DNA from: Yamagishiella unicocca
Lineage: Eukaryota > Chlorophyta > Chlorophyceae > Chlamydomonadales > Volvocaceae
Length of the DNA: 64,000 nt
Direction: 5' to 3'
Assembly (NCBI GenBank): GCA_003116995.1
Contig: BDSL01000001.1
Span: 2,356,001-2,420,000, forward strand
This document shows, one piece after another, positions 19,557 through 20,330 of the stretch. The notes under the pieces were generated by a model. That model worked only from the letters and a program-made list of their open reading frames with translations, did not search any database and was not told where the DNA came from. Position 1 is the stretch's first letter. Each line of letters opens with the position of its first letter. The translations under genes were made by a program, and so were the position numbers.

Positions 19557-19862
19557 TTAATCGCTGGAAATAATTGTTATTGGAAGGAGTTTGGACGAAC
19601 TGGTATCAGATACCGACATCAGAAAGTAGTTGTAGTAGTTGCAGTCATGACTACACAGCCTGCGCCCAGCCAAGGAGCTGCAAGGAGAGGTAGGGAGAGG
19701 TCCCCTCCTGTGACCCCGCCCTATCCGGCCTCTTGGGCTGGGGCAGGGTGCCTCTGCTGTCAGCAGCTATCCAACCGGCACGTATGAGATCCCTGCGGAC
19801 ACAATATATCCGGCAGGATCCAGCACATCCCGGCAAGAAATCAATAACGACGCGGAGGATAC

Positions 19863-19872
19863 AAAAATAAAA
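19863..19872 (-). terminator. RNA polymerase III T-run terminator of the permuted tRNA gene
   Basis: On the minus strand TTTT (19872-19869) and TTTTT (19867-19863) lie 14 nt past the end of the 5' half, just after the complementary flank. This is the expected position for Pol III termination. Confidence 0.75.
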
Positions 19873-19886
19873 TTGTCTCTCTGCAA

Positions 19887-19995
19887 TTCTAGTCAGTCCC
19901 CTTAACCACTCGGGCACGACTGCTGTATGAGTCCCCAAATCCGGGGTAGTACGCAGTCGGCAGGATTCGAACCTGCGCAGGAAATCCTAACTGAT
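19887..19995 (-). tRNA. Circularly permuted tRNA-Ser(AGA) gene
   Basis: On the minus strand the 3' half (19995-19952) precedes the 5' half (19923-19887), separated by a 28-nt spacer (19951-19924) with a CCCC/GGGG hairpin. The 5' half has acceptor GCAGTCG, TG at 8-9, D-arm CCC-GAGTGGTTAA-GGG, anticodon stem ACTGA and loop CTAGAA with anticodon AGA. The 3' half supplies A38, TCAGT (pairs exactly with ACTGA), a long variable arm (AGG/CCT stem) typical of Ser, T-arm GCAGG-TTCGAAT-CCTGC, acceptor CGACTGC (7/7 pairs) and discriminator G. The joined molecule is 81 nt before CCA. The B box (GGTTCGAATCC) comes before the A box. Flanks GTCTCT (20013-20008) and AGAGAC (19880-19875) are complementary. 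Read linearly, neither half finds a partner for its anticodon stem. Confidence 0.9.
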
Positions 19996-20330
19996 GTCGG
20001 TCTTCGAAGAGACATGTATGATATGCACATTGACATAGCTATAGCCTAAGATGTCAATGGATTCGGAGCAAACAGGTTTCGGAGCAAGCAACCAGGTTTC
20101 GGAGCAAGCAAGTACATGCAAGTATTAGTAACGGCTGAAGGCCAAATCCAAAGCGAGCGCTCCGTTTCCATTTTTTCCATGGGATATTTTTACGACGACA
20201 CAGTTATTTCTTTACCCTTGTTTCGCGACCCTTCGCCACGGCCACTTGTTCTAACGCATAACTGGTTCCGTTGCAATAGCCGCGAAACTATTCCGTTTCT
20301 ATTGCGCTATCAAAGTAGGATTTGATAGTT

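What the first reader, a model, noticed from the sequence alone, without database searches (positions are those of the whole stretch)
19863..20014. Circularly permuted tRNA-Ser(AGA) gene in a volvocine-type nuclear genome
Minus strand: the T-arm half precedes the D-arm half. Joined at positions 37/38 the two give a complete type II tRNA: 7/7 acceptor pairs, 5/5 anticodon-stem pairs (ACTGA/TCAGT), a 5/5 T-stem, Ser-type variable arm, G18G19 D-loop and anticodon AGA. Linear readings of either half fail. The outer flanks (20013-20008 and 19880-19875) pair perfectly over six bases, the helix expected for a splicing substrate, and a Pol III T-run follows. Permuted tRNA genes are known from the red alga Cyanidioschyzon, some nucleomorphs and prasinophyte green algae. 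I cannot say whether any has been described in core chlorophytes; if not, this is new.
Basis: partly seen in the sequence, partly recalled or inferred. Interest (0 to 1): 0.92.

Follow-up and report, generated by a model that had tools for sequence, protein, structure and literature searches.

The report
Rearranged serine tRNA gene in alga
A colonial green alga carries serine-tRNA genes whose two halves lie in reversed order, in five places in its genome, so that the RNA would have to be cut and rejoined through a circle before it could work; such genes were known from a few other algae but not, as far as we could find, from this group.

Summary
On the minus strand, 19995-19952 is the 3' half (A38-G73) and 19923-19887 the 5' half (G1-A37) of a tRNA-Ser(AGA), 28 nt apart. 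ARAGORN finds nothing in place but calls the rejoined halves tRNA-Ser(aga). The window's own volvocine genome (133.4 Mb) holds five permuted Ser(AGA) loci on four large contigs, with near-identical halves and unlike spacers and flanks. All five join at 37/38, have G at leader -3 opposite C32 (A-I pair), TTTT within 30 nt downstream (4.8% of window positions per 40 nt), and every cloverleaf pair, three with double-sided changes. Artefact or relic is unlikely. Against: the bulge-helix-bulge core is weaker than in this genome's ordinary tRNA introns; a notable leader-trailer helix in only two of five; seven linear Ser(AGA) genes coexist; no RNA data. Permuted tRNA genes are a known kind (red alga, prasinophytes, nucleomorphs, the trebouxiophyte Auxenochlorella). 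A review says Chlamydomonas reinhardtii has none; my searches found no report from Chlorophyceae. Five copies of one isoacceptor exceed anything in the 2014 table (at most two).

The parts
   Evidence: sequence; 7-nt perfect helix, reached by 1.6% of 1000 shuffles
19998..19998 (-). leader position -3, G, partner of C32 (A-I pair)
   Evidence: G at -3 in 5 of 5 permuted loci
19952..19995 (-). 3' half of tRNA-Ser(AGA): A38 to discriminator G73 (3' anticodon strand, variable arm, T arm, 3' acceptor strand)
19924..19951 (-). intervening sequence (28 nt) joining the acceptor ends; no TTTT in it
19887..19923 (-). 5' half of tRNA-Ser(AGA): G1 to A37, anticodon AGA at 19890-19888
19874..19880 (-). trailer strand of the leader/trailer helix
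19863..19872 (-). Pol III terminator-like T runs (TTTT, TTTTT)
   Evidence: first TTTT at +15; 4.8% of sampled window positions have TTTT within 40 nt

Best explanation
This is a functional circularly permuted tRNA-Ser(AGA) gene, one of a family of five found in this volvocine nuclear genome. Most likely mechanism: RNA polymerase III transcribes leader - 3' half - spacer - 5' half - trailer and stops at the T run. The transcript folds so that the anticodon stem (27-31 with 39-43), the acceptor stem and the A-I pair C32:G(-3) form. The tRNA splicing endonuclease cuts after A37 and before A38, a ligase joins 37 to 38 to give a circle, RNase P and tRNase Z cut out the spacer at the acceptor stem, and CCA is added. 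Shown here: the gene order, the complete rejoined cloverleaf, conservation in five loci, the A-I pair, the T runs, two endonuclease-domain matches in the genome. Inferred from the published work on red and prasinophyte algae: transcription, circle, trimming, charging.
For: Rejoined halves of 5 of 5 loci are called tRNA-Ser(aga) by ARAGORN and fold alike; in place 0 of 5. Model R1: 65.8-68.6 bits for all five (C1, C10b and C16 are training rows; C10a and C20 are not, but their halves equal those of C1) against at most 40.7 for tandem linear tRNAs in the G000 loci scanned. Halves 86-100% (3') and 95-100% (5') identical between loci, leaders 22-45% and trailers 25-33%; conservation stops at A37 and A38. 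All 23 pairs are standard in all 5 sequences; 3 pairs show changes on both sides, among them 27:43, which lies at the two ends of the permuted gene. G at leader -3 in 5 of 5; six intron-bearing linear tRNA readings also keep this pair, one as G-U (read by eye, a seventh, spurious reading left out). First TTTT at +15, +15, +17, +21 and +30 and none in the spacers. The true leader/trailer assignment ranks 1 of 120 by two measures. tRNA_int_endo (PF01974): two matches above cut-off.
Against: The strict 4-bp central helix of the bulge-helix-bulge motif is absent: beyond C32:G(-3), leader -4 and -5 pair with U33 and A34 in none of five, and -6 with G35 in two, so 1-2 of 4 pairs, whereas the six linear intron readings form 2-4 (by eye). 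Leader/trailer folding beats shuffles clearly only at C10b (1 of 1000; the others 146-669 of 1000), so the 1-of-120 rank leans on that locus. By helix length only C1 and C10b stand out. Covariation counts are modest: 8 of 500 shuffles reach the covariation score, 41 of 500 the number of double-sided pairs, 167 of 500 the number of pair types. Internal promoter boxes are in the wrong order. Seven linear Ser(AGA) genes exist, six of them on near-identical repeat contigs, so the permuted ones need not be essential. One of the two PF01974 matches spans a stop codon in the unspliced reading. No RNA evidence.
Confidence: 0.88

Rival explanations
1. Relics: truncated remains of tandem linear tRNA genes (3' half of one, 5' half of the next), transcribed or not, but not made into tRNA.
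For: A proposed origin is tandem duplication with loss of the outer halves (PMC3978253 section 10). Linear Ser(AGA) genes exist that could supply the tRNA. The central splicing helix is weak.
Against: Five loci keep all 23 pairs, with double-sided changes, while leaders, trailers and spacers are unlike; both halves end exactly at 37/38 in all five; A-I pair and T run in 5 of 5.
Confidence: 0.08
2. A Y RNA-like tRNA mimic (as YrlA), which also presents T arm and D arm in permuted order but is not a tRNA.
For: Elements on virus contigs score up to 67.9 bits with the permuted-tRNA model; in the five loci searched at permissive settings, the top scorer among them, they match Rfam YrlA below its threshold. 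So a high score in this model alone does not prove a tRNA.
Against: No Rfam match of any kind at E<=1 in the algal loci. The algal element has a complete anticodon arm with U33 and AGA and is close in sequence to linear Ser tRNA genes of the same genome.
Confidence: 0.02
3. Assembly artefact that inverted the order of the halves.
For: The assembly is fragmented (1415 contigs); one linear copy (C1322) has two extra bases that may be sequencing errors.
Against: Five loci with different spacers and flanks on four contigs of 1.3-3.5 Mb, each with the same boundaries.
Confidence: 0.01

Closest known systems
Permuted tRNA-Ser(AGA), type II (37/38), of the Micromonas pusilla nucleus and the Bigelowiella natans nucleomorph (2014 table); also reported for the Amorphochlora nucleomorph (junction not seen)
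   Same: same isoacceptor and, for the first two, same junction 37/38; short spacer (64 and 5 bp)
   Different: there one Ser(AGA) gene each in the table; here five loci with spacers of 9-28 nt plus linear copies in one genome; another green algal class. Sequences could not be compared
Permuted tRNA genes of Cyanidioschyzon merolae
   Same: order of halves, T stretch after the 5' half; processing through an RNA circle is reported there
   Different: there junctions at several positions and two TFIIIC subunits not found; here 37/38 in all five, and many ordinary linear tRNA genes
Permuted tRNA genes of Auxenochlorella, Trebouxiophyceae
   Same: core chlorophyte nuclear genome, permuted order
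   Different: another class; isoacceptors and sequences (Supplementary Fig. S1) were not seen by me
YrlA Y RNA (RF02553)
   Same: T arm precedes D arm, tRNA-like fold (as seen in the virus-contig matches)
   Different: a bacterial Ro-binding RNA (recalled), not a decoding tRNA; the algal loci give no Rfam match

Membership tests
Circularly permuted tRNA gene (as in PMC3978253) | 3' half upstream of 5' half on one strand with a short intervening sequence (1-74 bp) | tested here: met
   28, 9, 20, 17 and 17 nt in five loci
Circularly permuted tRNA gene (as in PMC3978253) | rejoined halves give an ordinary eukaryotic tRNA (U8, G18G19, U33, TTC in the T loop) | tested here: met
   ARAGORN 5 of 5, 23 of 23 pairs in 5 of 5
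Circularly permuted tRNA gene (as in PMC3978253) | junction flanks form a BHB/hBH motif for the splicing endonuclease | tested here: inconclusive
   anticodon stem and A-I pair in 5 of 5, but only 1-2 of the 4 central pairs; leader/trailer pairing 1 of 120 as a set, individually notable only in part
Circularly permuted tRNA gene (as in PMC3978253) | Pol III T stretch after the 5' half and none in the intervening sequence | tested here: met
   first TTTT at +15, +15, +17, +21, +30; no TTTT in any of the five spacers
Circularly permuted tRNA gene (as in PMC3978253) | upstream TATA-like or AT-rich region | tested here: inconclusive
   60-nt leader AT 0.50-0.62 (90th to 99th percentile of the window, rounded), a TATA or TTAA string in 3 of 5
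Circularly permuted tRNA gene (as in PMC3978253) | circular intermediate and mature CCA-ended tRNA | not testable with these tools
   no RNA data
YrlA Y RNA (RF02553) | match to the Rfam model | tested here: not met
   nothing at E<=1 in window 19700-20250 or in L002-L005
Ordinary tRNA gene, with or without intron | 5' half before 3' half | tested here: not met
   ARAGORN none at the five loci (introns to 120 nt allowed); (introns to 150 nt) gave one reading there, a tRNA-Gly(tcc) with a 150-nt intron that uses the C20 3' half, which I take as spurious

The most novel reading that the evidence does not exclude
The permuted Ser(AGA) gene is old in green algae, shared by descent with Micromonas and the chlorarachniophyte nucleomorphs, was lost in Chlamydomonas, and in this volvocine was copied in permuted form to at least five loci that went on evolving as permuted genes (27:43 U-A in C16, A-U in the other four).
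Probability: 0.15. Interest if true: 0.8.

Novelty: new member of a known kind. Interest (0 to 1): 0.56.

Why it matters
Permuted tRNA genes are rare and their origin is disputed. A genome in which five permuted and several linear genes for the same serine tRNA coexist lets one test whether the Pol III and splicing machinery of a Chlamydomonas relative handles genes whose internal promoter boxes are in reverse order, and whether the circle serves any purpose. It also shows that a standard tRNA finder misses genes in this well-studied lineage.

Tried and rejected
Instead short ungapped A-box patterns were used. Of 51 Ser-type A-box matches: 5 permuted AGA, 29 linear Ser (7 AGA, 2 TGA, 9 CGA, 11 GCT), 17 not tRNA (16 copies of one repeat and one other). 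The Leu-type pattern gave 256 matches (10 for the reversed control; capped list), of which 2 were fetched, both linear with introns; the Met-type pattern gave 19 (control 3), of which 1 was fetched, linear. The type I A-box pattern gave 118 matches (control 0; capped list), of which a part was fetched. RF00005 listed 66 matches, its first look holding 3122 candidates of which 63 were scored. Permuted genes for other isoacceptors are therefore not excluded.

Permuted tRNA-like elements on virus contigs, found in a control scan, looked like a new class until weak Rfam YrlA matches accounted for the five loci searched at permissive settings; I dropped the claim. A 224-bp block upstream of the C10 and C16 genes is a dispersed repeat, not part of the gene. 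Alignment A1 had the window row shifted by 3 nt and two Gly rows misaligned and was replaced by A2, without Gly rows.

The Yamagishiella unicocca plus assembly (134.2 Mb, 1461 contigs; PMC6123790, passages) is near G000 (133.4 Mb, 1415 contigs) but not equal; a search for '133.4 Mb' with 'volvocine' found no paper.

Full report
WHAT IS THERE. On the minus strand the window reads leader - 3' half (19995-19952) - 28-nt spacer - 5' half (19923-19887) - trailer with T runs. ARAGORN and Rfam (gathering threshold) find no tRNA in the 64 kb. Joining the halves at 37/38 gives an 81-nt class II tRNA that ARAGORN calls tRNA-Ser(aga), with 7/7 acceptor, 5/5 anticodon-stem and 5/5 T-stem pairs.

FIVE LOCI. 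The window lies in contig C1 of a 133.4-Mb genome of 1415 contigs. A 3'-half pattern (20 nt, up to 2 mismatches) has 16 matches there: 5 permuted, 10 linear Ser genes, 1 not a tRNA. A 5'-half pattern (33 nt, up to 3 mismatches) has 22: 5 permuted, 7 linear AGA, 1 TGA, 9 CGA. The permuted loci are C1 (the window), C10 twice, C20 and C16, with spacers of 28, 9, 20, 17 and 17 nt. Halves are 86-100% (3') and 95-100% (5') identical between loci; leaders average 32% and trailers 29% ungapped identity, about what unlike sequence gives (background not computed). The halves of C1, C10a and C20 are identical. BLAST finds little shared sequence outside the halves: a 224-bp dispersed repeat upstream of C10 and C16, short GA-rich matches and, for the C10 pair, the overlap of the two fetched stretches.

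TESTS OF FUNCTION. (a) All 23 pairs of the rejoined fold are standard in all five; three have double-sided changes (27:43, variable arm, 49:65). Of 500 shuffles 8 reach the covariation score, 8 the percentage paired, 41 the number of double-sided pairs and 167 the number of pair types, and the sequences are related, so this is supportive, not proof. (b) Leader -3 is G in 5 of 5, opposite C32, the A-I pair used by the eukaryotic splicing endonuclease (A-I pairs as such in PMC3978253 section 8; the exact positions 32 and -3 are recalled). As a control, six of the seven intron readings listed keep a 32:(-3) pair, one as G-U; the seventh, spurious, was left out (by eye). (c) TTTT begins within 30 nt of A37 in 5 of 5, against 4.8% of sampled window positions per 40 nt, and no spacer contains TTTT. 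(d) The true leader-trailer combinations have the best summed energy of 120 assignments by two measures, but this leans on C10b; individually only C10b beats its shuffles by energy (1 of 1000; others 146-669), and C1 and C10b by helix length (1.6% and 2.1%; the other three 33-96%). (e) Against: the central helix of a strict bulge-helix-bulge is missing; -4 and -5 never pair with 33 and 34, and -6 pairs with 35 in two of five, giving 1-2 of 4 pairs, while the six linear introns form 2-4 (by eye).

CONTROL FOR LOOK-ALIKES. A covariance model in permuted order (R1; 17 sequences, of which 3 are permuted loci and 14 rotated linear tRNAs, four of these with made-up spacers) scores the five loci 65.8-68.6 bits. 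Tandem linear tRNAs also look permuted to such a model, up to 40.7 bits in the 83 sources given to (many overlapping). On virus contigs it scored up to 67.9 bits on elements where ARAGORN or Rfam saw no tRNA in the loci I looked at. In five loci searched with permissive Rfam settings these matched YrlA at 24-40 bits, below its threshold of 69. YrlA is the bacterial Y RNA with a tRNA-like part (recalled; Rfam says 'Y RNA-like'). This is the rival most worth excluding. The algal loci give no Rfam match at E<=1 and have an intact anticodon arm with U33 and AGA; of the virus elements whose letters I read, several lacked a fully paired anticodon stem in this reading.

LINEAR COPIES AND MACHINERY. 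The permuted genes are not the only source of tRNA-Ser(AGA). Seven linear copies were found, all on contigs of 10-14 kb: six on near-identical repeat contigs (one, C1322, with two extra bases) and one on C1059 with a mismatch in the acceptor stem. The linear Ser CGA, TGA and GCT genes found are intronless. The permuted five share A3:U70 where the aligned linear AGA, CGA and TGA genes have G3:C70; C16 keeps the linear genes' U27:A43, while the other four have A27:U43. The simplest history is one permutation, later copying of the permuted gene, and a compensated change in the copies; this is inferred, not shown by a tree. Two tRNA splicing endonuclease domain matches are above cut-off, one of them across a stop codon in the unspliced reading.

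ORGANISM. The 120 listed homologues (of 194) of a window ankyrin protein reach at most 50% identity; 118 are named, all from Tetrabaena, Gonium, Astrephomene, Volvox or Pleodorina. So the genome is very probably volvocine, and not one of the species whose proteins appear there, since none is near-identical. Yamagishiella unicocca is a candidate by assembly size only (PMC6123790, passages).

WHAT IS KNOWN. The 2014 review (PMC3978253; sections 5, 6 and 8 whole, first parts of 4 and 10) lists 34 permuted tRNA genes in six algae and one archaeon, the green algal ones nearly all at 37/38, with Ser(AGA) in Micromonas pusilla and the Bigelowiella nucleomorph, no isoacceptor in more than two genes per genome, and says that Chlamydomonas reinhardtii has none. 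The Amorphochlora nucleomorph also has permuted Ser(AGA) and Ser(CGA) (PMC4494063, passages). Auxenochlorella, a trebouxiophyte, has permuted tRNA genes (PMC12633428 and PMC12636532, passages). My searches (listings, not every listed paper opened) showed no report from Chlorophyceae; the library is open-access only, and Maruyama 2010, the Chlamydomonas tRNA gene paper and PlantRNA 2.0 (recalled identifiers) are not held.

VERDICT. A real permuted tRNA-Ser(AGA) gene, very probably functional, in a green algal class for which I found no earlier report, and part of an unusually large permuted family. Kind known; member new.

Noticed in passing
L107 8744-8820, L108 5699-5773, L111 7804-7881, L131 10360-10438 (-), L158 10484-10559 (-) and others; L229 602-678 and 960-1022 (Streptomyces phage BRock), L230 597-674 (Vibrio phage VB_VaC_TDDLMA), L231 593-680 (Caulobacter phage CcrPW): Virus contigs carry many elements with T arm before D arm. 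In five loci searched at permissive settings they match Rfam YrlA weakly (24-40 bits, threshold 69); L107, L108 and L111 were searched at gathering threshold only. Probably a large, under-annotated group of phage Y RNA-like tRNA mimics with a shared flanking motif. Named phages: no match for the L107 element, 4 records for L158, 19 for L187 (some of these are ordinary tRNAs); no annotated feature under the BRock, TDDLMA and CcrPW matches.
   Followed up: partly
G000 C70, C142, C241, C245, C283, C305, C344, C409, C435; C132; C148; C308: A Leu-type tRNA A box occurs 256 times (capped list), often at spacings of about 2.8-3.7 kb that suggest tandem arrays. Lys(CTT) recurs about every 3.0-3.1 kb on C132; Asn(GTT) with an intron-bearing gene every 655 bp on C148, and A boxes at a similar spacing on C308.
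   Followed up: no
L002, L005, L015, L024, L064, L078, L105 and other tRNA loci of G000: A GA tract ending in CCGC, in several loci followed by GTTACAGTGGCCGC and a dispersed repeat block (224 bp identical between C10 and C16), lies near many tRNA genes: 44 of 107 sources scanned (window and L001-L106, many overlapping or repeated), none in the 64-kb window. Possibly a mobile element that inserts near tRNA genes; no proper background was computed.
   Followed up: partly
G000 C922, C1009, C1059, C1296, C1322, C1342, C1409: Small contigs sharing 2.45-kb repeats carry the linear Ser(AGA) genes; one copy has two extra bases. The true copy number is unknown.
   Followed up: partly
L039 and L100: ARAGORN labels these Ile(aat) and Val(aac) with a 24-nt intron; read by eye they are Ala(AGC) genes with an intron after position 37.
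   Followed up: no
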